From contig NZ_FMDN01000003.1 in assembly GCF_900090245.1 (NCBI RefSeq), positions 186,001-250,000 on the forward strand: 64,000 bases of DNA, in the 5' to 3' direction. Shown here in pieces: positions 2,708 to 50,800 of this stretch (the first letter of the stretch is position 1; each line of letters opens with the position of its first letter). A program made the translations under genes and the position numbers. The notes below the pieces were generated by a model. That model saw only the letters and a list, made by a program, of their open reading frames with translations. It did no database searches and was not told where the DNA came from. This stretch comes from Micromonospora halophytica (lineage in GTDB: Bacteria > Actinomycetota > Actinomycetes > Mycobacteriales > Micromonosporaceae).

Positions 2708-4336
2708 ATGCGCAGCGACGGACGCGGCCGCTGGTGGGGACTGCTGGCCATCAGCCTCGGTGTCGCGATGATCATCGTGGACGCGACGATCGTGAACGTC
2801 GCCGTACCGCAGATCATCCGGGACCTGGAGATCACCTCCGCCGACGCGCAGTGGGTGCAGGAGGCGTACACCCTGGTCTTCGCGGCCCTGCTGCTGGTCG
2901 CCGGACGCTTCGCCGACCGGGCCGGACGGCGGCGGATGTTCGTCGCCGGCGTGGTGGTCTTCGTCGCGGCCAGCGTGCTCGCCGCCGTCGCCGGCTCCGG
3001 CGAGACGCTGATCGCCTCCCGGGTGCTCCAGGGCGTCGGCGGCGCGATGATGCTGCCCACCTCGCTCTCCCTGCTCAACGCCAACTTCACCGGCCGGGAG
3101 AAGGGTGTCGCCTTCGCCGTCTGGGGCTCCACCATCGGCGGCGCGGCCGCCCTCGGCCCGCTGCTCGGCGGCTGGCTCACCACCGAGCACTCCTGGCGCT
3201 GGGCGTTCGGCATCAACGTCCCGGTCGGCGTCGCCGTCGTCGCGGCCACCCTCGTCCTGGTCCGCGAGTCCCGCGACGACCGGGCCGAACGCGGAATCGA
3301 CCTGCTCGGCGCGCTGCTCTCGGTGATCGGCATGACCGGCGTCGTCTTCGCCCTCATCGAGGGACGCACCTACGGCTGGTGGGAGCGGGAGCGGCCGTTC
3401 CGCCTCCTCGGCCTGGACTGGACCGCCACGATCTCCCCGGTGCCGGTCGCCGGGCTGCTCGGGCTCGTCGCGCTCGGCGTATTCGTGGCCCAGCAGCTGC
3501 GCCGGGGCCGGGCCGGCCGTCCCGCCCTGCTCGACCTGTCGCTGTTCGGCATCCGTTCGTTCCGCACCGGCGTTCTCGCCGCCGCGATCGTCAGCCTCGG
3601 CGAGTTCGGGCTGCTCTTCGCCCTGCCGCTGTGGTTCCAGAACGTCCTCGGCTACAGCGCCTTCGGCACCGGTGCGGCGCTGCTGCCGCTCGCCGTCGGC
3701 AGCTTCCTGGCCAGCGGGCTCGGCACGCCGTTCACCCGGCGCTGGGGCGCCGCCCGGATGGTCCAGCTCGGGGTCGCCGCCGAACTGGTCGGCGTCGCCG
3801 GGATCGGCCTGGTCGTCGCGCCGGACACCCGGTGGTGGGCACCGCTGGGCTTCCTCTTCGTGTACGGCGTCGGGGTCGGCCTGGCCACCGCGCAGCTCAC
3901 CGGCGTCTCCCTCGCCGACGTTCCGGTGCAGCGCAGCGGGCAGGGCTCCGGCATCCAGAGCACCGCGCGGCAGGTCGGCTCCGCGCTCGGCATCGCGGTG
4001 CTCGGCACGGTGCTCTTCGCCAGCCTGGGCGGCCTGCTCGGCGACCGGCTCGCCGACCAGCCGGGCCTTGACGGGGCGCAGCGCGACCAGGTGGTCGCCG
4101 CGGTCAAGGACAGTGCCGGCGCGGCCATCACCGGGCTGGCCGCCGACCCCCGTACGGCGCCGGTCGCCGACGAGGCGAAGGAAGCGTTCTCCGACGCCAC
4201 CCGGTACGCCGCGTTCGCCGCCGCCGGTTTCCTCCTGGTCGGCCTGCTCGCCTGCACCCGTCTCCCCCGACCCCACCCCACCTTGACGGACCCCGCACCC
4301 GCCCCCCGGCAGCCCACCCCGACCGCCTCCCGCTGA
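2708..4336 (+). CDS. DHA2-family MFS drug:H+ antiporter
   Basis: A 542-residue membrane protein with about 14 hydrophobic helices. TM1 carries the family motif IVDATIVNVAVPQI and the TM2-3 loop carries motif A (GRFADRAGRRRMFVAG). Motif C-like GSTIGGAAALGPLLGG and WRWAFGINVPVG complete the EmrB/QacA signature. The length matches 14-TM multidrug exporters. ATG at 2708 follows GAGGAGG. The C-terminus is a Pro-rich cytoplasmic tail. It is expected to export lipophilic drugs or an endogenous metabolite using the proton gradient, under control of the divergent MarR. Confidence 0.93.
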   Translation: MRSDGRGRWWGLLAISLGVAMIIVDATIVNVAVPQIIRDLEITSADAQWVQEAYTLVFAALLLVAGRFADRAGRRRMFVAGVVVFVAASVLAAVAGSGETLIASRVLQGVGGAMMLPTSLSLLNANFTGREKGVAFAVWGSTIGGAAALGPLLGGWLTTEHSWRWAFGINVPVGVAVVAATLVLVRESRDDRAERGIDLLGALLSVIGMTGVVFALIEGRTYGWWERERPFRLLGLDWTATISPVPVAGLLGLVALGVFVAQQLRRGRAGRPALLDLSLFGIRSFRTGVLAAAIVSLGEFGLLFALPLWFQNVLGYSAFGTGAALLPLAVGSFLASGLGTPFTRRWGAARMVQLGVAAELVGVAGIGLVVAPDTRWWAPLGFLFVYGVGVGLATAQLTGVSLADVPVQRSGQGSGIQSTARQVGSALGIAVLGTVLFASLGGLLGDRLADQPGLDGAQRDQVVAAVKDSAGAAITGLAADPRTAPVADEAKEAFSDATRYAAFAAAGFLLVGLLACTRLPRPHPTLTDPAPAPRQPTPTASR

Positions 4337-4368
4337 CCCGCACCCCGGTCCGGCCCAGCTCGGGTGGG

Positions 4369-5910
<1,542 letters not shown>

Positions 5911-7662
5911 TCAGGCGATGGTGCAGATGGCCGCGCCGGCGGTGATCACCGCGCCGACCTCGGCGGTGAGGCCGCTGACCGTACCGGACTTGTGGGCGTG
6001 CAGCGGCTGCTCCATCTTCATCGCCTCCAGCACCACGACCAGGTCGCCCTCGGCGACGGTGTCCCCGTCCGCCACGGCGATCTTGACGATGGTGCCCTGC
6101 ATCGGCGAGGCGAGCGCGTCGCCGCTGACCGTGGCGCCGGCCTTGGCGCCACCGCCCCGACGGGCCGGCTTACGGGCGGCGGGCGCGGCGGTGGTCGTAC
6201 CCCCGCCGAAGCCGGCGGGGAGGCTGACCTCCAGCCGCTTGCCACCCACCTCGACCACGACGGTCTCGCGCTCGGCCGGGCCCTCGACGGGGCCGGCGGG
6301 CGCGGTGAAGGCCGGCACGGTGTTGTCGAACTCGGTCTCGATCCACCGGGTGTGCACGGTGAACGGCGCGGCGGTGAACGCCTCGTCCCGGACGACCAGG
6401 CGGTGGAAGGGCAGCGCGGTGGCCATGCCCTCGACGACCATCTCGTCCAGCGCCCGGCGGGCCCGCTCGATCGCCTCGGTACGGGTCTCGCCGGTGATGA
6501 TCACCTTGGCCAGCAGCGAGTCGAAGTTGCCACCGATCACGTCGCCGGCCGAGATGCCGGTGTCGACCCGGACGCCGGGGCCGGTGGGCAGCCGCAGCGC
6601 GGTGATGGTGCCCGGGGCGGGCAGGAAGTTGCGACCCGGGTCCTCGCCGTTGATCCGGAACTCGATGGAGTGCCCGCGCGGGGTCGGGTCCTCGGTGAAA
6701 CGCAGCTTCTCGCCGTCGGCGATGCGGAACTGCTCGCGGACCAGGTCGACGCCGGCGGTCTCCTCGGTGACCGGGTGCTCCACCTGGAGCCGGGTGTTGA
6801 CCTCCAGGAAGGAGATGGTGCCGTCGGCGCCGACGAGGTACTCGACGGTGCCGGCGCCGTGGTAGCCGGCCTCCCGGCAGATCGCCTTGGCACTGTCGTG
6901 GATCTGCCGGCGCTGCGCGTCGGTGAGGAACGGCGCGGGGGCCTCCTCGACCAGCTTCTGGTGCCGGCGCTGCAACGAGCAGTCCCGGGTGCCGACGACG
7001 ACCACGTTGCCGTGCTGGTCGGCCAGGACCTGCGCCTCGACGTGGCGGGGCTTGTCCAGGTACCGCTCGACGAAGCACTCGCCCCGACCGAACGCGGCGA
7101 CCGCCTCGCGGGTGGCCGACTCGAACAGGTGCGGGATCTCCTCCATGGTGCGGGCCACCTTGAGGCCGCGCCCGCCGCCGCCGAAGGCCGCCTTGATGGC
7201 GACCGGCAGGCCGTGGTCGACGGCGAAGGCCATCACCTCGTCGGCGTTGCCGACCGGGTCGGGGGTGCCGGGGACCAGGGGAGCGCCGGCCCGCTGGGCG
7301 ATGTGCCGGGCGGTGACCTTGTCACCCAGGTCGCGGATCGCCTGCGGGGTGGGGCCGATCCAGGTCAGCCCGGCGTCGATGACGGCCTGGGCGAAGTCGG
7401 CGTTCTCGGAGAGGAATCCGTAGCCGGGGTGGACGGCGTCCGCGCCCGACTTCCCGGCGATGTCGATCAGCTTGTCGATCCGCAGGTAGCTGTCGGCCGC
7501 GGTGTCGCCGCCGAGGGCGTACGCCTCGTCGGCGAGGGTGGCGTGCAGGGCGTCCCGGTCGGAGTCCGCGTAGACGGCGACGCTGCCCAGACCGGCGTCG
7601 CGGCAGGCACGGATGACGCGGACGGCGATCTCGCCACGGTTGGCGATGAGTACCTTGCGCAC
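5911..7662 (-). CDS. accA: Acyl-CoA carboxylase alpha chain: biotin carboxylase plus biotin carrier
   Basis: A 583-residue protein that carboxylates biotin with ATP and bicarbonate and carries it to the beta subunit, making malonyl- or methylmalonyl-CoA. It begins [20 protein letters not shown], has the ATP-grasp Gly-rich loop ([14 protein letters not shown]) and catalytic core ([17 protein letters not shown]), then a low-complexity linker and a biotinyl domain with AMKM; the biotin Lys is residue 549. GTG at 7662 has GGGAGGAG 9 bases upstream. Its beta, epsilon and biotin ligase partners are at 20898-22481, 14390-14602 and 22567-23442, the same set that surrounds AccA3 in mycobacteria. Confidence 0.96.
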
Positions 7663-7918
7663 CTTGAGGGCTCCTCCCGGAAGGTCGTTGACCGGGAGTG
7701 TATCGGCCACGCCGGAGCCCCTAACGATCGCTCAGTGTGGGATGTGGCACTGTTCCGCCGGCCGCCGGTGAACTTGCTCATTACGCTTGGCCGGTGTCTG
7801 CGACTCGCATGACGATTCTCGGCCTGGTCCGCTGGATGCAGCCGGTGGAACGCGCCGTCCGGACGCCGTCCCCGAGGGAGAGTGGCCGGTGCGGCCAGCC
7901 GGACGACCAGGAGCAGAC

Positions 7919-8878
<960 letters not shown>

Positions 8879-8896
8879 GAAATCGGAGACCGCACG

Positions 8897-9652
8897 ATGA
8901 AGCTCGCCCGCGACACCTGGCTGATCTTCCAGCGCCAGTTCCAGCTGCTGATGCGCAACCCGGTCTGGGTCTTCGTCGGCGTCTTCCAGCCGGTGATGTA
9001 CCTGCTGCTCTTCGCCCCGCTGCTCAAGCCCGCGCTGAACGCCCCCACCCAGGCGGCGGCCTACAAGATCTTCGTCCCCGGCCTGCTGGTGCTGCTGGCC
9101 ATCTTCGGCGGCCTCTTCCAGGGCTTCGGCCTGATCGCCGAACTGCGCGCCGGGGTGATCGAACGCTCCCGGGTCACCCCGGTCAGCCGGCTCGCCCTGC
9201 TGCTCGGCCGCTCGCTGCGCGACGTCGTCTCACTGATCGTGCAGGCCGTCATCATCACCCTGCTGGCGCTGGCATTCGACCTGCGCGTATTCATCGGCGA
9301 CCTGCTGCTGGCCTACCTGATGCTCGCCCTGATCGCGCTGATGACCTCGGCCGTCTCCTACGGCGTCGCCCTCAAGGTCAAGAGCGAGGACGCGCTCGCC
9401 CCGCTGATGAACACCGTCGCCCAGCCGGTGCTGCTGCTCTCCGGCATCCTGCTGCCACTCACCTTCGCCCCGGGGTGGCTCCAGGGCGTCGCCGAGTGGA
9501 ACCCGTTCTCCTGGGCGGTCGACGGCACCCGCGCGCTCTTCGCCGGAGACCTCGGCAACGACAAGGTCTGGCAGGGGCTGACCATCATCGCGGTGCTCGC
9601 CGCCGCCGGCGTCTTCTGGGCCGCCCGGCAGTTCGCCCGCAGCGTCCGCTGA
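8897..9652 (+). CDS. ABC-2 type permease, DrrB-like
   Basis: A 251-residue integral membrane protein with about six hydrophobic segments. The N-terminus (LIFQRQFQLLMRNPVWVFVG) and the segment ending FAPGWLQGVAEWNPFSWAVD match the DrrB/ABC-2 permease family. It pairs with the ATPase encoded immediately upstream and forms the pore of an efflux complex in the cytoplasmic membrane. The last part (WAARQFARSVR) is a short positively charged tail. Transcription probably stops in the hairpin at 9920-9978. Confidence 0.92.
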   Translation: MKLARDTWLIFQRQFQLLMRNPVWVFVGVFQPVMYLLLFAPLLKPALNAPTQAAAYKIFVPGLLVLLAIFGGLFQGFGLIAELRAGVIERSRVTPVSRLALLLGRSLRDVVSLIVQAVIITLLALAFDLRVFIGDLLLAYLMLALIALMTSAVSYGVALKVKSEDALAPLMNTVAQPVLLLSGILLPLTFAPGWLQGVAEWNPFSWAVDGTRALFAGDLGNDKVWQGLTIIAVLAAAGVFWAARQFARSVR

Positions 9653-9841
9653 CAAGAGCCGGCTCCCACCTGGGGCGGGGCTCCGGCCGTCCGCTTGTTG
9701 CGTAAGGGTGGTGCCCCGCCTCACCCATGACAGGACCACCTGGCTGACCCACGCCCAGCTGGGCCTGTGGGGCTTCTCCCTCTACGGGTTCGGTCCGGTC
9801 GTACGGCGGACGACCCCGAACCCGTCCCCGCATGATCCCTC

Positions 9842-9925
9842 CGCCGGGGTGGCGGTGGTGGTCTCCGTGTCGCCGGGGTGGCGGTGGTTGTCTCCGTGTC
9901 GCCGGGGGCGGTGTTGTCGCCGTGT
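9842..9925. repeat. 29-base tandem repeat, about three units
   Basis: Unit 1 (9842-9870) and unit 2 (9871-9899) differ at one base. Each begins CGCCGGGGTGGCGGTGG and ends GTCTCCGTGT. Unit 3 (9900-9925) is shortened to 26 bases, and a fourth, partial unit starting at 9926 merges into the left arm of the hairpin at 9920-9978. There are no spacers, so this is not a CRISPR. The right hairpin arm reads as an inverted copy of the unit's start. Confidence 0.75.
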
Positions 9926-9978
9926 CGCCGGAATGGCGGTGGCAGCTGCTGTCCGACACCGCCATTCCGGCGACACGG
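9920..9978. terminator. 22-bp perfect inverted repeat, bidirectional hairpin
   Basis: The arms 9920-9941 and 9957-9978 are perfectly complementary over 22 bases, with a 15-base loop. The arm core is GTCGCCGGAATGGCGGTG. It lies between converging genes and ends 13 bases before the methyltransferase stop codon, so it could terminate both transcripts. Its arms derive from the neighbouring tandem repeat. Confidence 0.75.
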
Positions 9979-9991
9979 AGACGGCTGGCCG

Positions 9992-10645
9992 TCAGCGCAC
10001 CCGGGCCAGGGTGACCCCGTCGGCGATCGGGAGCATCACCGTCTCGACACGGACGTCGGCCAGCACCTCGTCGTTGAAGGCGGCGATCGCCCGGTCGTCG
10101 GCGTCGCGTGGGGCGAGCACCCGGCCGCCGCGCAGCGTGTTGTCCACCGCGATCACCCCGCCCGGACGCATCCGGGGCACCAGCTCGTCCCAGTACACCG
10201 GGTAGCCGGTCTTGTCGGCGTCGATGAACGCGAAGTCCAGGTGACGCTCCAGGGGCAGCTCGCGCAGCGTGTCCCCGGCCGGGCCGATCCGCAGCTCGAT
10301 CCGGTCGGCGACACCCGCCTGTTCCCAGTACCGCCGGGCGATGCCGGTGTACTCCTCAGAGATGTCGAAGCAGGTCAGCCTGCCGTCCTCGGGCAGGCCA
10401 CGGGCGATTGCCAGCGAGGAGAGCCCGGTGAACGTGCCCACCTCCACCGCCTGCCGTACGCCGAGCAGCCGGACGAGAAAGGTGAGGAACGCGGCCTGCT
10501 CCGGCGCCACCTGCATCACCGCCTGGTCGGGGAGGGCGGCGATCGTCTCCTCGTACAGGTCGCGGACGGTCCCGTCCGGCGACGACCCGTGGGCCACAAG
10601 GTAGGCGTGCAGTTCCGGTGTCAGCGGCAATGGCTTGGAGGTCAT
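9992..10645 (-). CDS. SAM-dependent O-methyltransferase, CCoAOMT-like
   Basis: A 217-residue class I methyltransferase. The SAM loop is VEVGTFTG (about 68-74), the metal/substrate motif is FIDADK (140-145) and VDNTL follows at 167-171, giving the Asp/Asp/Asn divalent-metal ligands of catechol O-methyltransferases. Proteins of this family methylate catechol-like hydroxyls in secondary metabolites; the substrate here is unknown. ATG at 10645 lies 6 bases after TAGCGT (10652-10657), whose first three bases are the TAG stop of maf. It can therefore be transcribed on its own as a leaderless message as well as by read-through from maf. Confidence 0.9.
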   Translation of the reverse strand: MTSKPLPLTPELHAYLVAHGSSPDGTVRDLYEETIAALPDQAVMQVAPEQAAFLTFLVRLLGVRQAVEVGTFTGLSSLAIARGLPEDGRLTCFDISEEYTGIARRYWEQAGVADRIELRIGPAGDTLRELPLERHLDFAFIDADKTGYPVYWDELVPRMRPGGVIAVDNTLRGGRVLAPRDADDRAIAAFNDEVLADVRVETVMLPIADGVTLARVR

Positions 10646-10654
10646 GTCCGGACG

Positions 10655-11311
10655 CTAGCCGAGATGGGCGATCTCCTGACCCCCCGGCGCGACCTTCGTC
10701 CACAGGTCCGTGATGTCGAGCTCCAGCTCACCGAGGAGCCGGCGCAGCATCGGCAGCGAGAGCCCCACCACCGTGCCCGGGTCACCCTCGATCCCGGTCA
10801 GGAACGCCCCGCCCAGCCCGTCGATGGTGAACGCCCCCGCCACCGCCAGCGGCTCCCCGGTCGCCACGTACGCGGCGATCTCCTCGTCGCTGATGTCGGC
10901 GAAGTGCACCACCGTCGACGCCACCGCCTCCGCCCGGGCTTCGTGCGTCACGTCCACCAGGCAGTGCCCGGTGTGCAGCACCCCGCTGCGCCCCCGCATC
11001 CGCCGCCAGCGGTCCGTGGCGTCGGCGGCGTCCGCCGGCTTGCCCAGGATCTCCCCGTCGAACGCCAACACCGAGTCGCAGCCCAGCACCAGCGTGCGCT
11101 CGTCCGGGGTGGCGCGCAGGCGGTCCAGCACCGCCAGCGCCTTCAACCGGGCCAGTTCCAGGCACAGATCCTCGGCCCGGTCGCTGACCACCTGGGACTC
11201 GTCGACGCCGCTGACCAGCACGTCGGGTTCGATCCCGGCGGCCTGGAGGAGCTTGCGGCGGGCGGGACTCTGGGATGCGAGGACGAGGCGCAGCGGCAGG
11301 GAGTTCGGCAC
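10655..11311 (-). CDS. maf: Maf-like nucleoside triphosphate pyrophosphatase
   Basis: A 218-residue Maf/Ham1-fold protein: N-terminal LVLASQSPARRKLLQAAG, then DESQV, LGCDSVLAFDGEILGKP and a GDPGTVVGLSLP tail, all family signatures. Maf enzymes hydrolyse non-canonical or modified nucleotides to monophosphates and are linked to division arrest. GTG at 11311 lies 7 bases after TAGCGT (11319-11324); the TAG of that hexamer is the stop codon of the mycosin gene. In mycobacteria maf lies beside accE5 and near accA3, so this is a core gene of the locus. Confidence 0.93.
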   Translation of the reverse strand: MPNSLPLRLVLASQSPARRKLLQAAGIEPDVLVSGVDESQVVSDRAEDLCLELARLKALAVLDRLRATPDERTLVLGCDSVLAFDGEILGKPADAADATDRWRRMRGRSGVLHTGHCLVDVTHEARAEAVASTVVHFADISDEEIAAYVATGEPLAVAGAFTIDGLGGAFLTGIEGDPGTVVGLSLPMLRRLLGELELDITDLWTKVAPGGQEIAHLG

Positions 11312-11321
11312 GCCGCCGACG

Positions 11322-12455
11322 CTACCGGCTGATCCGGGGCGGCGGGTCGTCGGCACGGCGACGTCGACGCCAGATCAGGTAACCCCCACCGGCGGCAACG
11401 ATCACGCCGAGGGTGACGAGACCGCGAGCGGTCGCCGCGTCGTCACCGTCGCTGTCGGCAACTGCCGTGGGTGGGGCACCGTCGGGCGGTGGGGTGACCG
11501 TCGACGACTCGAAGCCTAGGGGTGGTACGTCAGCGGTGAGCGCGGCGACGAGGTCGATGACTCCGTACCCGTACTCGTCGTCACGGCCGGGTGGGCCCTT
11601 GTCGACAGCGGTGGCGGTGAGCCGGTGCGCGACCTCGGAGGCGGGCAGGTGAGGGTACTTGGCTCGGATCAGTGCTGCAGCGCCCGCGACGATGGCCGTC
11701 GCACCTGAGGTGCCGGTTCCCCTTCGGTATCTGCCGTCATTGCTGGTGCTGAAGATATCGACGGCGGGTGCGACAACATCGATTTCCGGGCCAGTGACCG
11801 AGATCGCGGCTCGGGTTCCGGTCTGATCAATTCCGCCTACTGCGATCACTCCGGGCTCTGCTGCAGGATAGCCAACGCCGATCTGAGGCGGGCCGTTTCC
11901 TGCGGCGGCAACAACTACGATGTTGGCGGCGAGGGCCTCCTTGACTGCCTTCTGTAGCCGGACGCTAGCGGCAGCAACAGCGGAGACGCTAATAACATCT
12001 GCATGGTTTGCCGTCGCAAATTCGATGCCGGCGGCGAGTGCATCGGTCGTGCCATCTGCCTTGGGTGGCGATTCATAAATCGGTAGGATTTTAGCCTTGG
12101 GGGCAATGCCCATAGCGCCGGCGTCGCCTTCTTGTCCATGTGCGGCAATTAGGCCAGCCATGCCAGTGCCGTGACCATCCCGGTCTTGCCTCCCGTCGCC
12201 AGCCCCACCTGGGATGACGTCGGTGCCTGGCAGGAGGTTGCGAAGTAAGTCGGGATGAGGGTCTACTCCACTATCTGGAACTGCGACCGTGACGCCTTCG
12301 CCCTGGCTGGTCCGGTGGGCGTCTTCCGCTTTAAGGTAGCGCAGGTGCCACTGTTCATCCCGATTTCGGTCCCCCTGGGCTGGGGTTGCCGGAATTGCTA
12401 GGATGACTGTGAGGGCTAGCAGAGCTAATGTGGCCCTGGTTGAAGCTCGATTCAC
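11322..12455 (-). CDS. Mycosin-like membrane-anchored subtilisin protease (ESX/type VII associated)
   Basis: A 377-residue S8 protease. It has a signal peptide (residues 1-28), catalytic Asp61 (PDSGVD), His95 (DGHGTGMAG) and Ser250 (GTSGATAIVAGAAAL), oxyanion Asn187, one transmembrane helix at 344-361 and a short Arg-rich tail. This is the MycP layout: an extracytoplasmic protease tethered at the C-terminus. The GTG start overlaps the stop of the PPE-like gene in a GTGA junction, so the two are coupled. Residues 1 to about 270 are encoded by DNA clearly lower in GC than the rest of the window; the 3' end is normal. No EccB/C/D/E gene is present here. Confidence 0.9.
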   Translation of the reverse strand: MNRASTRATLALLALTVILAIPATPAQGDRNRDEQWHLRYLKAEDAHRTSQGEGVTVAVPDSGVDPHPDLLRNLLPGTDVIPGGAGDGRQDRDGHGTGMAGLIAAHGQEGDAGAMGIAPKAKILPIYESPPKADGTTDALAAGIEFATANHADVISVSAVAAASVRLQKAVKEALAANIVVVAAAGNGPPQIGVGYPAAEPGVIAVGGIDQTGTRAAISVTGPEIDVVAPAVDIFSTSNDGRYRRGTGTSGATAIVAGAAALIRAKYPHLPASEVAHRLTATAVDKGPPGRDDEYGYGVIDLVAALTADVPPLGFESSTVTPPPDGAPPTAVADSDGDDAATARGLVTLGVIVAAGGGYLIWRRRRRADDPPPRISR

Positions 12456-13825
12456 CGGCTGAAGCCAATTGCGGGCCCAGGGTCGATTGGTCCATCCTCG
12501 TCTGGTGGACGGACAACCGGATCTACGCCTTCCCGGGTAGCCCACGGATTATCTGGGTCCCAGCGGCCCGAATCCCCCTCCTGTTCTCTGCGGCTAGGCC
12601 GGCCTGGGATCCCCTGAGGACTTCCAAAGCCCGGCGAACCGCCAATCGGCGACATCCCATGGGCTGGACTCAAGGGGCTGGTCCGACCGGTTCCTGGTCG
12701 GGAGCCCGCTGCTCCCGTGGGCGCGGTCCCAGCGGCTCCTCCACCGATCACGCCACCCACGGGATTAATCCTGCGCGATTGCGTGCCATTTCCATGCTGG
12801 CCAGGTCCCGTCCCAGGTGTGCTTCCGATCAAACCTCCAGGCTGCATGAAGCGAGAGGGTGCGTTGTGTGGGGGTTGCCCTCCGCTTGAGGGGAGGTGAC
12901 CCGTTTGCCCACGGAGTGCAGCCGAGGAGCCTGGACGTGATGACGTAGACGGGGGCGGGGCGGAAGGCAATGTCGGCGGTAGCCCGACGCCTTGTTGAGG
13001 CATTGAGGGCAAGCCAGTGCCTGGCATGGGTGAAGGGGTGGAGGGCGTGATCACGGACGAGTTGGCTCCGCCTAAAACAGGGCCGACGTTGGGCGCAGTG
13101 GGTGCATGAGCCGAATGCAACGGAGTGGCGGAACGCTTCGCCGGCGATGTCGGGTTAGAGGTTGATATAGGCACCGGCATGATCGGTGGGATGATCGGCG
13201 GGGCTGCACCCGCTCCGCTGGACGATTCGAACTGTTGATCGGACTTCGGCGCTGCTCTCTGCGGGGGTTGGCGGAGCATGACCTGGGCCTGCTGCAGTTC
13301 GCCGCTCAACCCGAACATGATTCCTCGGGCCCGCGAGTTCAACTGCTCCAGATCCGCGTCCGTCACCGGCGGCTTCGTCGTGCGGTTGCCGGCCAACGCC
13401 TTCGGGTCGGTGATCATCTCCTCGTACGAGCGTTTCTGCGCCAGCTTCGTCGAGTACTGCTCGTAGAGGGTCTTCACCTGAGGCCGGGCGCTGTCGATGG
13501 CGCGGGTCGCGGCGGCGAGCGCGTCGTGGTTGGCGGCGGCGGTGTCGTGGGTGCGCTGCACCTTCTCGATGAGCTGGTCCAGCTCGGCCAGGTACGCCCG
13601 GGCGGCGGCGTTGGTCTCCGGCGGCCACGCCTCGGCCAGCCCGCGACGGTACTCGTGGAGCCGCCTCATGTGATTCATCGCCAGGTCGCACACCTTGCGC
13701 CAACCGGCGACCTGCTTCCAGTGCCCGCTGGTGTCGTGGTCCTGCAGGCAGGCCCACATGCTCTGCACGTCCATCAACTGCCAGTCGGTGAGGCCGGACG
13801 TCCGGCCGCCGCCCCGTTCGATCAC
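12452..13825 (-). CDS. PPE/EspB-like secreted-substrate candidate with Pro/Gly-rich tail
   Basis: A 457-residue protein. The first 190 residues are helical hairpins rich in Trp, Ala and Leu (DWQLMDVQSMWACLQDHD, RGLAEAWPPETNAAARAYL, a W-x-x-E motif between helices), resembling PPE/EspB/WXG100-type type VII substrates. Residues about 200-410 are low-complexity Pro/Gly/Ser/Thr. The C-terminus is an ordered acidic tail (NPWATREGVDPVVRPP, DPGPAIG). GTG at 13825 overlaps the upstream stop (GTGA), and its own stop overlaps the mycosin start. GC and codon use change from typical to low at about 13.2-13.4 kb, inside the gene. The family call is by fold logic, not close homology. Confidence 0.75.
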   Translation of the reverse strand: MIERGGGRTSGLTDWQLMDVQSMWACLQDHDTSGHWKQVAGWRKVCDLAMNHMRRLHEYRRGLAEAWPPETNAAARAYLAELDQLIEKVQRTHDTAAANHDALAAATRAIDSARPQVKTLYEQYSTKLAQKRSYEEMITDPKALAGNRTTKPPVTDADLEQLNSRARGIMFGLSGELQQAQVMLRQPPQRAAPKSDQQFESSSGAGAAPPIIPPIMPVPISTSNPTSPAKRSATPLHSAHAPTAPNVGPVLGGANSSVITPSTPSPMPGTGLPSMPQQGVGLPPTLPSAPPPSTSSRPGSSAALRGQTGHLPSSGGQPPHNAPSRFMQPGGLIGSTPGTGPGQHGNGTQSRRINPVGGVIGGGAAGTAPTGAAGSRPGTGRTSPLSPAHGMSPIGGSPGFGSPQGIPGRPSRREQEGDSGRWDPDNPWATREGVDPVVRPPDEDGPIDPGPAIGFSR

Positions 13826-14277
13826 GGCAGCACCACCGGCCCCCGGTTGTCCGGGCCGGTGGGGTCGGTGAGGGTGGCGCCGCGGTGCGGCCTCGCGGCG
13901 TACGGGCGGGCGAGCGCCTCGCGTACGTCGCCGACGCGGGCGGCGGCGAAGGCGTCCGTGCCCTCGTACTCGGCGGCGATCTTCCCGGCGGCGCCTGCCA
14001 GGTGGCCGGTCGCCCCGCCCAGGTCCCACACCGTGTTGGCGGTGGCCTGCTGGGTCTCGTGGTGGGCGCGCAGGAAATGCACCAGTTCGATGAACGCGTC
14101 ACACGGGTCGGGAATGGCTGCGGTCATGTCGTCCGCAATGTAGGACAGGTGCGGTGCGTAGTTGCGGTCGACCTCGGCCTGGAGCCGGTCGGCGAACTCG
14201 CGCATCTGGCGGATGTCGGCTTCGATGCGGTCGTTTTCGCGCAGCCAGGAAGCTGGGCGGTCCTCCTCAGGGATCAT
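13822..14277 (-). CDS. Helical WXG100-like protein of the orphan ESX module
   Basis: A 151-residue protein, mainly helical (EADIRQMREFADRLQAEVDR; FIELVHFLRAHHETQQATAN), with a W-D-L-G-G turn followed by a second helix, then a Pro/Gly-rich end. There is no signal peptide. Size, fold and its place just before a PPE-like gene and a mycosin suggest an ESX-type secretion partner or chaperone. ATG at 14277 has GGGAGG 6 bases upstream, so this gene starts the operon. Its stop overlaps the next start. Composition is normal high-GC, unlike the two genes after it. No defined family is recognised with certainty. Confidence 0.65.
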   Translation of the reverse strand: MIPEEDRPASWLRENDRIEADIRQMREFADRLQAEVDRNYAPHLSYIADDMTAAIPDPCDAFIELVHFLRAHHETQQATANTVWDLGGATGHLAGAAGKIAAEYEGTDAFAAARVGDVREALARPYAARPHRGATLTDPTGPDNRGPVVLP

Positions 14278-14389
14278 CGATCCTCCCTACCCGTCACGGC
14301 CCCGTTCCCCTGAGTGAGGTTAATGGGTCCCGTGTGATCTCGGCAGCCCCGACGAGGAGGCGGGACTCGGGTCGCGTACCCGGGGCAGG

Positions 14390-14602
14390 TCAGCGGGGCA
14401 GGCCGGAGGCGCGCCACGCGCCCGGACCGGCGGTGGGGGCCGCGACGGCCGGGCGGCTGCTGCGCGCCCAGGCGGAGACGGCCACCGGCGCGGGCGCGGC
14501 GACCGGCCGGGACCGGACGACGATCGCGCCCACCAGGGCGGCCAGTTCTTCGGCGGTCGGGACACCCCGGACGACCCGGAACAGCGGCTCTTCGGCAGAC
14601 AT
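14390..14602 (-). CDS. accE: Acyl-CoA carboxylase epsilon subunit
   Basis: A 70-residue protein with the family's two marks: VVRGVPTAEELAALVGAI at the start and WRASGLPR at the C-terminus. It stabilises the alpha-beta acyl-CoA carboxylase complex in actinobacteria. ATG at 14602 lies 6 bases after TACGCT (14609-14614), a leaderless arrangement. It is normally found directly after accD; here accD is 6.3 kb away with unrelated genes between. The linker is Ala/Pro/Val-rich. It was probably left in place when other genes entered the locus. Confidence 0.85.
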   Translation of the reverse strand: MSAEEPLFRVVRGVPTAEELAALVGAIVVRSRPVAAPAPVAVSAWARSSRPAVAAPTAGPGAWRASGLPR

Positions 14603-14693
14603 GCCGTCAGCGTACGCGTCGCGAACTTGACCTTCGCCGCACAGTGGCGTGCCGGCGGTGTCAGCGTTGGCGACGCCGGGTACCGTCTCAGCG

Positions 14694-16986: not shown

Positions 16987-17739
16987 TCAGGTGTTGTTCG
17001 CCAGCGCGATCAGCCGGGTGCGGTCGCCGTTCCAGTAGTTGCGGTCGACGTTGCCGCTGATCCCGGAGACGCGGCCCGAGTCGGTGTACTGCCAGAAGCT
17101 CCAGAACGGAGCGCCGGCCGGCAGCGTGCCGGGGCTGCTCGCCCAGCGGGCGATCCAGAGCGGGTGGTTGGCCCACGGGCCGGTCCAGTAGCCGGTGCAC
17201 TGGTTCCACCAGCTGGTGGTGGTGTAGATGACCGCGTACCGGCCGGTGCGGGCGCGGTAGGTGTTGAGGAAGTCCTGGATCCAGCTGCGCATGCCGGCGG
17301 TGGACAGGCCGTAGCAGTAGCCGCCGCTGTAGGGGTTGCCCTCGACGTCGAGCGCGGCGGGCAGGGTCCGGCTGTCGGCCGACCACGCGCCACCGTTGCT
17401 CGCCAGGAAGTTGGCCTGGGTCGCGCCGGAGGAGATGTTCGGGCGGGCGAAGTGGTACGCCCCGCGGATCACCCCGGCGTAGTACGCGTTGGTGTAGTTG
17501 CTGTTGAAGTTCGGGTCCTTGTAGGTCGTACCCTCGGTGGCCTTGATGAAGGCGAACTGGATGCCCGAGCTGCGGACGCTGGTCCAGTTGATGGACCCCT
17601 GCCAGCGGGAGACATCGATGCCGGGGACGGTGGCCGCGGCCGCCGGTGCGGCGGTGACCACGAGGGCCGCGGCCGCGGTGGCGGCGGCGGTGAGGCCGGC
17701 GGCGAGGAGCCGGCGCAGCGAGAATCTGGTACGGGCCAT
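16987..17739 (-). CDS. Secreted GH25 muramidase (Chalaropsis-type lysozyme)
   Basis: A 250-residue protein with an Arg-rich, Ala-rich signal peptide cleaved near residue 36. The mature part is a single GH25 barrel: IDVSRWQG with Asp42, FIKATEGTTY, GAYHFARP, and LDVEGN with Asp131 and the catalytic Glu133. It cleaves peptidoglycan between MurNAc and GlcNAc. It has no binding module, so it is the minimal form. ATG at 17739 has GGAGG 7 bases upstream; the AT-rich 5' region (17765-17830) probably holds the promoter. It may act in wall turnover or competition. Confidence 0.93.
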   Translation of the reverse strand: MARTRFSLRRLLAAGLTAAATAAAALVVTAAPAAAATVPGIDVSRWQGSINWTSVRSSGIQFAFIKATEGTTYKDPNFNSNYTNAYYAGVIRGAYHFARPNISSGATQANFLASNGGAWSADSRTLPAALDVEGNPYSGGYCYGLSTAGMRSWIQDFLNTYRARTGRYAVIYTTTSWWNQCTGYWTGPWANHPLWIARWASSPGTLPAGAPFWSFWQYTDSGRVSGISGNVDRNYWNGDRTRLIALANNT

Positions 17740-17866
17740 GGATGCCTCCAGGGGGGTGCCGATCGATTGACGACAATCCTTGGAGTTACTTGCCCATGAG
17801 CGCAAGGGGGGTTAAGGAAATTTTCGTCGACGGCTTGCACGTCCTTGCAGGACTGATCGGGATCGG

Positions 17867-47873: not shown

Positions 47874-50800
47874 TCAGTTCACGGCGCCGATGGAGACCGC
47901 GCTGCGGCCGACGACCGCGCCTTCGGTGGTCACCACGGCCAGTTCGCCGTAGAGCTCCCGGCCGTCGGCCGGGGCGGCCAGGGCGGTCACCGTACCGGTG
48001 AGGGTGGCGGTGGCGCCGTGGGCCAGGGTGAGCGGGGTGCTCGGGGCCGACAGGCTGCCCAGCGCCGACGACGAGAACGAGTCCCGGTAGTCGTACGCCG
48101 TGCTGCCGCCGGCACCGTCGACCGCGTAGCCCTCGACGACCACCCGGTAGGTGCCGGGCGCCGGATTGGCGAGGGTCACCGCCTCCTCGGAGTCACCGTC
48201 GGCGGACTGGCCGACCGCGGTGTCACCCCGGAAGACGTACAGGTCCAGGTCGGCGGCGGCGTTCGCCGGGTTGCCGATCCGGGCGGTGAACTGGCTGACG
48301 CCCTCCGGCACCTCGACGGTGAACTCCTGGGTGCCGAGCTCCGCGATCGTCGGCCGCTCGTTGCGCACGCTGGAGAGGGGACCGCCCTGGCCGGCCACCG
48401 AGACCGGGCCGAAGGTGTTGGTCAGGTCCCACGTCACCGGGGTGGCCTCACCGGCGTCGACCGCCGGCAGTTCGACCACGGCCGGCTCGACCGCGACACC
48501 CTGGATCCGCACCGTGAGCTGGAACGGGTTGTTCAGCGACGGCGAGGTACGACGCGACTCGACCTCGATCTCCCAGACGCCCGGGATCGGGTTCTGGTAG
48601 TCCCGCTCCTGCGGCTTGCAGGTCGCCGGGTTGGAGAAGTTGGTGAAGCAGGCCAGGCTGGAGGTGCTCTCCACCGGAACGCCGTACGGGTTGAAGGCGA
48701 TGAAGCGGGTCTGCGAGCCGGTGGCGATGCCGGAGAGGTTCACCTGCAGCGCACCGGTACCCGGCGGCACGGTCACGTAGTACGACGTGACGCCGTTGCG
48801 GTCCACCGAACCTTCGGCCGAGAACGCGTAGCTCGGCTCACGGGTGTCGACGGACGCGACCACCACGAGGGAGACCTCGAAGTCGACCGTGTTGGTCTTC
48901 GGGTCGTCGACCAGCATCAGGGCGCCGTGGGCACCGGCCGCCTTCGCCTTGGCGGTGACGGTGACGGTGACGGGCTTGTTCAGCGGCAGCGAGACGGTCT
49001 TCGGCGCCTTGAAGGTGCCGTCGTTGCCCCGCAGCGTGACGTTGTGCCTGACCGAGCCGGCCGGCCCGCTGGTGCGGGTGAGCGTGACCTGGTAGGTCTT
49101 GCTCTGGCCGACCTTCTGGCCGCCCTCGACCGAGGCGCAGCGGTTGTAGACGCCCGTGCCGCGGTTCGGGGTGGACAGCTGCTCCGACAGCACGGTGCAG
49201 ACCGGAGCCTCGGAGGTGTACGAGCGGGTCTCGACGCCCTTGCGCAGCAGCTTCCAGGCGCCCGGCACGTTGACCATGCCGTAGCCCTGGCCGTACGTCG
49301 GAACGCCCTTGATCGGCTTGGCCGAGCTGTAGATGGCCCGGCGCAGCGCGGCCGGGGTGACGCCCTTGTCGGTCGCCTTGGCGGCCGACAGCAGCAGCGC
49401 GGCGGCGCCGGCTGCCTGCGGGGAGGACATCGAGGTGCCGTTGAACATGCCGTAGCCCGGCGGCAGCGCGTAGCCGGCCTCGGGGACCGGGCTGCCCGCC
49501 TGCCAGACCGGGATGGTGGAGATGGCGGAGCCGGGCGCGGTGATGTTCGGCTTGAAGCCGCCGTCCTCACGCGGGCCGCGCGAGGAGAAGTTGAACAGCG
49601 CGTTCTTCGCCCGCACCACCGAGCCGTAGTTGGCCAGCCAGGTGTCCTTGCTGATGCTGGCCGCGGTGCTGATCACGTTGGCCGCGACCGACGGGTCGCC
49701 GACCGTGTTCAGACCCGGGCCGCTGTTACCGGCCGAGATGACCAGCTGCACGCCGTAGGTGGTGATCAGGTTGTTGTACAGCTCCGCGCGGGCGTTGTTG
49801 CCGTCGTTGAGCGCCGGCAGGCCACCGATAGACATGTTGACCACGTCGACCTTGCGGTTGATCACCAGGTCGGCCATGCCGGTGGTGAGCGCCGCGTAGG
49901 TGCAGCCGCCGCCCCAGGTGCAGGCGCGGGAGGAGACCACCTTGGCGCCGGGCGCGGCTCCGTCGAAGGCGTCGTTGCCCAGCATGTCGTTGGCGGCGGT
50001 GATGCCCGCGACATGGCTGCCGTGCGCGTCCTCGACGATGCCGATGTTGACGTAGTCGACCAGGCCCGGGCCGCCGAGCGGGGTGGTGTCGACGTCCTCG
50101 CGGTACTCGACCACGAACGGCATCTGCTCGCGGACCCCAGTCGCCGGGTTGTCGGTGCCGAAGTGCCCGACGTCGAACTTCTCCTTGTACGGCCGCATCA
50201 GGGCCTCGTCGGTGAAGTCCCGGTCCAGGTCGACGTCCACCCAGATGTCGTTGGTGGCGGGGTTGTAGAGCACGCCCCACACGTCGGTGGTGTCGCCGTC
50301 CCGGTTGACGTCGCCGCCCGGCTCGCTGCCGGCGGTGATCGACTCACGGAAGGTGCTGAACCGGTAGGTGCCCGCCGGAGCGGTCCAGGTCGCGCCGGCC
50401 GCGGTGAACGACGGACCGGTCACCTCGGTGATCATCGGACGCCAGGTCGCGTCCTCGAACGGGTCCGTTGCGGTGACCCAGTCGACGATCTTGCGCTCAC
50501 CGGTGGTGGTCCGCTGGAGAGCAGGGTGGTCGAGGTCCACACCGGAGTCCATGATGCCGATGGTGACGCCCCGGCCGTCCCACTCCGGGTGCTGCTCGAC
50601 GAAGCGGACGGCGCCAGTCTCGTTGGCCGGCATGTAGGGGTTGGCGGCGCGGGTGGCCTCGCCCGGCCCGGGGAGGGTCGTGCCCTGCTTCGCCGCCTTC
50701 CGTCCGGTGGGGGCGGCCTCCGGCTTCGGGTCCGGCCGCTGGATCTTCTCGTCGAGGTCGACTGCGGAGACGCCGGGCAGCGTGGCCGCCTTGACCACCT

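What the first reader, a model, noticed from the sequence alone, without database searches (positions are those of the whole stretch)
11322..14277. Orphan ESX-like module: helical protein, PPE-like protein and mycosin with no secretion machine
Three genes with GTGA overlaps encode a helical WXG100-like protein, a PPE/EspB-like protein with a long Pro/Gly/Ser tail and ordered acidic end, and a membrane-tethered mycosin with an intact Asp61/His95/Ser250 triad. Known ESX loci pair mycosin with EccB/C/D/E; none is here. The strict coupling suggests the protease acts on the PPE-like protein, so this may be a stand-alone processing or surface-display system, or a substrate set served by a machine elsewhere. 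This is my best candidate for an undescribed system.
Basis: partly seen in the sequence, partly recalled or inferred. Interest (0 to 1): 0.68.

Follow-up and report, generated by a model that had tools for sequence, protein, structure and literature searches.

The report
Detached type VII secretion substrate cassette
In Micromonospora and its relatives, a probable secreted protein pair resembling the PE/PPE proteins of tuberculosis bacteria sits in an operon with its own mycosin protease, hundreds of kilobases from the secretion machine that probably exports it; that machine's own locus has no such pair, so the system appears to be genetically split in two.

Summary
On the minus strand, a 151-aa helical protein (13822-14277), a 457-aa PPE-like protein (12452-13825) and a 377-aa mycosin (11322-12455) overlap by GTGA. 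The large partner's N-terminus models as a PPE fold (six PPE structures rank first). The small partner is PE-like rather than WXG100: no WXG motif, but an invariant YxxxD export motif. The mycosin has an intact triad.

The module is not machine-less. It is a conserved cassette of Micromonosporaceae, sitting between accE and Maf in most genera, and all 251 family genomes searched encode EccC. Homologous cassettes occur inside genuine ESX loci directly after EccC. One ESX type ('B', EccD-EccC-mycosin) has no PE/PPE-like pair; every trio-bearing genome classified carries B, and some show no other EccC. Two Micromonospora genomes without B also lack the trio, with an empty site.

Best reading: an export pair plus a dedicated mycosin, detached from an ESX locus and served in trans by machine B. 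Export, pairing and cleavage are inferred, and the B link rests on few independent evolutionary events. It is a new variant of a known kind, possibly with mycosin labour divided between machine and substrate.

The parts
13822..14277 (-). PE-like small partner (151 aa), helical, with T7SS export motif Y104-x-x-x-D108 after the second long helix; no WXG motif
   Evidence: Y104/D108/A109 invariant in 27 family sequences; low-confidence helical model; homologous by profile to the ESX-embedded small partner (E 1.9e-14)
13822..13825 (-). GTGA: stop of the small partner overlaps start of the PPE-like gene
   Evidence: GTGA/ATGA in 77 of 79 named loci
12452..13825 (-). PPE-like protein (457 aa): PPE-fold domain (residues about 13-190), Pro/Gly/Ser-rich tail, conserved C-terminal end
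   Evidence: AlphaFold2 pLDDT 87.7; PPE41/PPE15/PPE4 top hits, Z 12.7-13.5
13256..13825 (-). PPE-fold domain as modelled (residues 1-190); invariant W67 in the turn between the two long helices
   Evidence: alignment of 28 sequences; model
12452..12592 (-). Conserved C-terminal end of the PPE-like protein (W-DPD-PW...GV-PV...IDPGPAIG)
   Evidence: DPGPxIG found in 73 of 79 named loci
12452..12455 (-). GTGA: stop of the PPE-like gene overlaps start of the mycosin
   Evidence: 4-base overlap in 65 of 79 named loci
11322..12455 (-). Mycosin: signal peptide, subtilase domain (D61/H95/S250), C-terminal transmembrane segment
   Evidence: (TIGR03921 280.3 bits; PF00082 E 3.7e-47)
14390..14605 (-). 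Conserved upstream neighbour, small acyl-CoA carboxylase epsilon-like protein (called accE here); flank of the site, not part of the module
   Evidence: beside the trio in all 80 named loci; adjacent to Maf where the trio is absent. The gene name is from my own knowledge, not from a family search
10655..11356 (-). Conserved downstream neighbour Maf (nucleotide pyrophosphatase); flank of the site, not part of the module
   Evidence: named from its sequence, not from a family search

Best explanation
The trio is a type VII (ESX) substrate-protease cassette that has been separated from its machine. The small PE-like and the large PPE-like proteins most likely fold together as a PE/PPE-type heterodimer carrying a two-part export signal (W in the turn of the large partner, YxxxD at the end of the small one). 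EccC of an ESX system encoded elsewhere exports them. The most likely carrier is the 'type B' locus (in this genome G000:C34, EccD-EccC-mycosin), which has no PE/PPE-like pair of its own. The co-translated, membrane-anchored mycosin then acts on the exported pair outside the membrane, most likely trimming the Pro/Gly/Ser tail. Shown by computation: gene order, conservation, modelled PPE fold, invariant export motif, homology to ESX-embedded cassettes, lack of a pair in type B loci, co-occurrence. Inferred: export, dimer, choice of machine, cleavage, direction of the move.
For: (1) PPE fold: six PPE structures lead the list, Z 12.7-13.5, rmsd 2.3-2.9 over 160-168 residues, next unrelated fold 10.6. 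(2) YxxxD invariant in 27 family members and in the ESX-embedded homologues. (3) The same three genes, with both partners homologous by profile, lie directly after EccC in type C ESX loci; trio mycosins form one group next to these cassette mycosins and apart from the machine-linked type B mycosins. (4) No PE/PPE-like pair was found in any type B locus read, from Micromonospora and from other genera; gene lists of four were checked. (5) Of 38 genomes classified, 22 have trio and B, 3 have B only, 13 have neither, none has the trio alone (Fisher p 1.3e-6 on one per genus). (6) G037 has a complete trio and a single EccC, which is type B; G061, G051 and G045 likewise show one EccC. (7) The two Micromonospora genomes without B (G015, G206) lack the trio at the accE-Maf site. 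(8) The EccC of G069, placed beside the B group, still has a cassette next to it.
Against: On supported branches only two independent contrasts link trio and B, so the association is not significant once kinship is counted. Three genomes have B and no trio at the usual site or detected elsewhere (G056, G063, G073). EccB and EccE are not in the type B locus and were found here only in type A, so a shared or hybrid machine is possible. The small-partner model is poor (pLDDT 57.6) and no dimer could be modelled. Nothing shows that the mycosin cuts anything; in M. marinum MycP5 has no known substrate (PMC5082899).
Confidence: 0.6

Rival explanations
1. The pair is exported by the type A ESX machine (G000:C33, with EccB, EccC, EccD and EccE) or by whichever ESX is present, and type B has another role.
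For: Type A is the only locus here with EccB and EccE; many genomes carry several EccC types.
Against: Type A already has two pairs of its own; G037, G061, G051 and G045 have the trio or its small protein but one EccC, the type B one; type B has no pair.
Confidence: 0.2
2. The trio mycosin is mainly structural, a second cap or stabiliser for an ESX complex, and proteolysis of the PPE-like protein is incidental or absent.
For: In M. marinum MycP1 and MycP5 are needed for complex stability while their protease activity is dispensable for secretion (PMC5082899).
Against: Type B loci keep their own mycosin with intact triad (31 of 31); the trio mycosin is translationally tied to the pair and keeps its triad in 33 of 34.
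Confidence: 0.2
3. A stand-alone surface-display or processing system: the proteins act without any ESX machine.
For: No ecc gene near the trio in the window genome or in the relatives read.
Against: Neither partner shows a signal peptide in its sequence; YxxxD is invariant; all 251 family genomes searched have EccC.
Confidence: 0.07
4. A decayed remnant of an ESX locus with no present function.
For: It is a detached part of a known locus type and is absent from some genomes.
Against: 79 of 80 named loci hold all three genes, with triad, overlaps, export motif and C-terminal end conserved.
Confidence: 0.02

Closest known systems
Mycobacterial PE/PPE heterodimers (PE25-PPE41, PE8-PPE15, PE5-PPE4)
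   Same: PPE fold of the large partner, adjacent small helical partner with a YxxxD/E-type signal near its C-terminal end
   Different: No Pfam PE or PPE match; own mycosin in the operon; no EspG gene seen in the operon; a family without mycolic acids (general knowledge)
ESX-1 EspB with MycP1
   Same: PPE-like helical domain with a long low-complexity tail, and a mycosin linked to it; EspB is also among the fold matches (Z 9.6)
   Different: EspB carries both halves in one chain; EspB and MycP1 are encoded in the ESX-1 region (general knowledge), whereas the trio is hundreds of kilobases from any EccC
Type C ESX loci of Micromonosporaceae (L063-L066, L119, L124, L156, L165, L166)
   Same: Same three kinds of gene in the same order, both partners homologous by profile
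   Different: There the cassette lies directly after EccC, next to EccD
espACD operon of M. tuberculosis (from general knowledge)
   Same: ESX substrates encoded far from the machine that uses them
   Different: espACD has no mycosin and its proteins are of another family

Membership tests
Mycosin (T7SS serine protease, TIGR03921) | Score over the curated cut-off of the equivalog model | tested here: met
   280.3 bits against 278.75, a narrow pass
Mycosin (T7SS serine protease, TIGR03921) | Asp/His/Ser triad with signal peptide and C-terminal transmembrane segment | tested here: met
   signal peptide read from the sequence by eye
Mycosin (T7SS serine protease, TIGR03921) | Encoded with EccB/C/D/E and associated with that membrane complex | tested here: not met
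   No ecc gene beside it in the genomes read; physical association not testable. The claim is therefore 'mycosin-family protease', not 'machine mycosin'
PPE protein family | PPE fold (long helical hairpin plus further helices) | tested here: met
   model pLDDT 87.7; PPE structures Z 12.7-13.5 above a next-best 10.6; Foldseek E only 5e-3
PPE protein family | Pfam PPE (PF00823) sequence match | tested here: not met
   No Pfam match to E 10; homologues in ESX loci reach WXG100_2 and, weakly, PPE. Hence 'PPE-like', not PPE
PE protein family | Helical hairpin with C-terminal YxxxD/E signal, no WXG motif | tested here: inconclusive
   Motif invariant, no WXG; hairpin model too weak and no usable structural match
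WXG100 (ESAT-6) family | WXG motif and match to WXG100 models | tested here: not met
Type VII (ESX) substrate | Export that depends on EccC | not testable with these tools
   needs a secretion assay in an eccC mutant

The most novel reading that the evidence does not exclude
In Micromonosporaceae the two jobs of mycosins are divided between two genes: a machine-linked mycosin in the type B locus holds the ESX complex together, and the substrate-linked mycosin in the detached cassette is the processing protease for one exported PE/PPE-like pair. The ESX system is then a two-locus device whose substrate half has been fixed at a housekeeping site across most of a family.
Probability: 0.3. Interest if true: 0.7.

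Novelty: new variant of a known kind. Interest (0 to 1): 0.5.

Why it matters
The essential and the proteolytic roles of mycosins are hard to separate in mycobacteria, where one gene does both and targets are mostly unknown (PMC5082899). Here there may be separate genes: one mycosin with the machine, another co-translated with a single likely target, in a soil genus. It also places PPE-fold proteins in bacteria where published surveys list only ESX-4-type clusters and assign pe/ppe to later clusters (PMC4791881, PMC11217815), and it suggests what ESX loci without a substrate pair may carry.

Tried and rejected
Stand-alone system: rejected, because all family genomes searched have EccC. Small partner as WXG100: rejected. 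Sequence search against solved structures for the small and PPE-like proteins: nothing credible. Structural look at the small partner: nothing usable. Profile search of the small partner over 396 genomes of the phylum: matches only in two genomes of the window's genus, though few candidates were scored per genome. Genome searches with the full PPE-like protein failed technically. I first read G046, G050, G053 and G059 as lacking the trio; G046 has it at the usual site and the other three have it elsewhere. G016, G058, G062, G067 and G044 were left unclassified because of contig ends, missing Maf or partial matches. Literature searches for orphan mycosins gave no paper; the library lacks most subscription journals.

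Full report
What is there. Three minus-strand genes overlap by GTGA: small protein 13822-14277, PPE-like 12452-13825, mycosin 11322-12455. The mycosin passes the NCBIfam mycosin model narrowly (280.3 bits, cut-off 278.75) and matches Pfam Peptidase_S8; the other two match no family credibly. The window lies in a genome of 6.27 Mb in 64 contigs; the nearest named loci are Micromonospora. No EccC match lies on the window's 517-kb contig.

Conservation. The trio stands at the same site, between accE and Maf and beside a Ser/Thr kinase gene, in all 15 genomes of the genus first read and in nearly all of 20 genomes from other genera of the family. In 80 named loci, 79 hold all three genes, 80 have accE and the kinase beside them, 77 have Maf, and none shows EccB, EccC, EccD or EccE within about 5 kb; these loci were chosen by the small protein, so they speak for completeness, not frequency. 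Of 251 family genomes 196 match the small-protein profile (some of these are ESX-embedded paralogues). A search over 396 genomes drawn from the phylum found it only in two of the window's genus.

The proteins. The PPE-like N-terminus models well (pLDDT 87.7, pTM 0.73): helices 33-66 and 73-139 with invariant W67 in the turn. Foldseek and VIA-align put mycobacterial PPE proteins first (Z 12.7-13.5, rmsd 2.3-2.9, 160-168 residues; next fold 10.6; EspB 9.6). For helical proteins Z below about 13 can be chance, so the weight lies in six PPE entries leading as a group. The small partner models poorly, but Y104, D108 and A109 are invariant in 27 family sequences. This is the YxxxD form of the T7SS export signal (general knowledge); in mycobacteria the C-terminal signal sits on the PE partner (PMC11217815). 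The PPE-like tail is Pro/Gly/Ser-rich and ends in a conserved IDPGPAIG stretch. The mycosin triad is intact in 33 of 34 family members.

Where the machine is. The own genome has two ESX loci: type A on C33 (EccB, EccC, EccD, an EccE-like protein, WXG100 proteins, mycosins and two PE/PPE-like pairs) and type B on C34 (EccD, EccC, mycosin). All 251 family genomes have EccC over the cut-off. A third type, C, found in some genomes, has EccD, EccC, then the same three kinds of gene as the trio: small partner with YxxxD, PPE-like protein, mycosin. Profile comparison shows homology of both partners between the trio and type C (E 1.9e-14 and 1.3e-13).

Type B has no pair. None of the type B loci read from Micromonospora and other genera contains a PE/PPE-like pair detectable by profile; gene lists of four show mostly housekeeping-like genes around EccD-EccC-mycosin. 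In the EccC tree type B is one group, and the EccC of G069, beside it in the midpoint-rooted tree, still has a cassette next to it. In the mycosin tree the trio mycosins form one group (support 91) next to the type C and G069 cassette mycosins, while type B mycosins stand apart (quick tree). The simplest history is that a cassette next to EccC was moved or re-sited at accE-Maf, leaving B without a pair; the direction is inferred.

Trio and type B go together. Of 38 genomes classified, 22 have both, 13 have neither, 3 have B without the trio and none has the trio without B. B status of genomes whose EccC loci were not read (G033, G040, G042, G052, G070) rests on low identity to type B alone. 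G037 has a complete trio and one EccC, type B, 412 kb away on the same contig; G061, G051 and G045 also show a single EccC. G015 and G206, the two genomes of the genus without B, have no trio at the accE-Maf site. Fisher p is 1.3e-6 on one genome per genus, but on well-supported branches only two independent contrasts exist, so kinship could explain the pattern. Several genomes were left unclassified because the site lay at a contig end.

How it most likely works. The two partners pair as PE and PPE do, EccC of the type B system recognises the YxxxD end and the pair is exported; the mycosin, made from the same message and anchored outside the membrane, trims the PPE-like tail. In mycobacteria mycosins hold the ESX complex together while their protease activity is dispensable for secretion, and their targets are mostly unknown (PMC5082899). 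Type B keeps its own mycosin, so the trio mycosin may be a dedicated processing enzyme. Export, pairing, machine choice and cleavage are not shown.

Known or new. The parts are known kinds: PPE fold, YxxxD signal, mycosin. Published surveys describe ESX-4-type clusters in bacteria without mycolic acids and place pe/ppe in later clusters (PMC4791881). I found no paper on a mycosin-substrate cassette detached from its machine, in a library that lacks most subscription journals. I rate it a new variant of a known kind.

Noticed in passing
L021 (G000:C38:44000-56000), 4448-4828 + and 5313-6650 -: Another mycosin of the same genome without EccC nearby (316.9 bits), with a WXG100 protein about 0.5 kb away. 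It falls in a different mycosin group from the trio.
   Followed up: partly
L221 (G000:C33:71000-90000), 3143-6354 +: Beside EccB of the type A ESX locus lies a further small/PPE-like pair (YRTTE motif, 'PAWTG' turn) whose small partner is weakly similar to the trio's (E 1.5e-6).
   Followed up: partly
L023 (G000:C34:98001-118000), 6694-14392: The type B ESX locus contains only EccD, EccC and a mycosin, with a PAP2 phosphatase beside it in Micromonospora; EccB and EccE are not there.
   Followed up: yes
window 49254-50033 (-): A long reading frame (1115 aa) with a weak mycosin/subtilase match (45 bits).
   Followed up: no
window 16987-17805 (-): A secreted protein that reads like a glycosyl hydrolase family 25 lysozyme, close to the module.
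   Followed up: no
L106 (G068:C106:7000-23000), 4785-8045 and 11100-12944: In this genus the order of the trio is changed (PPE-like, mycosin, small partner) and a further mycosin lies about 3 kb away.
   Followed up: no
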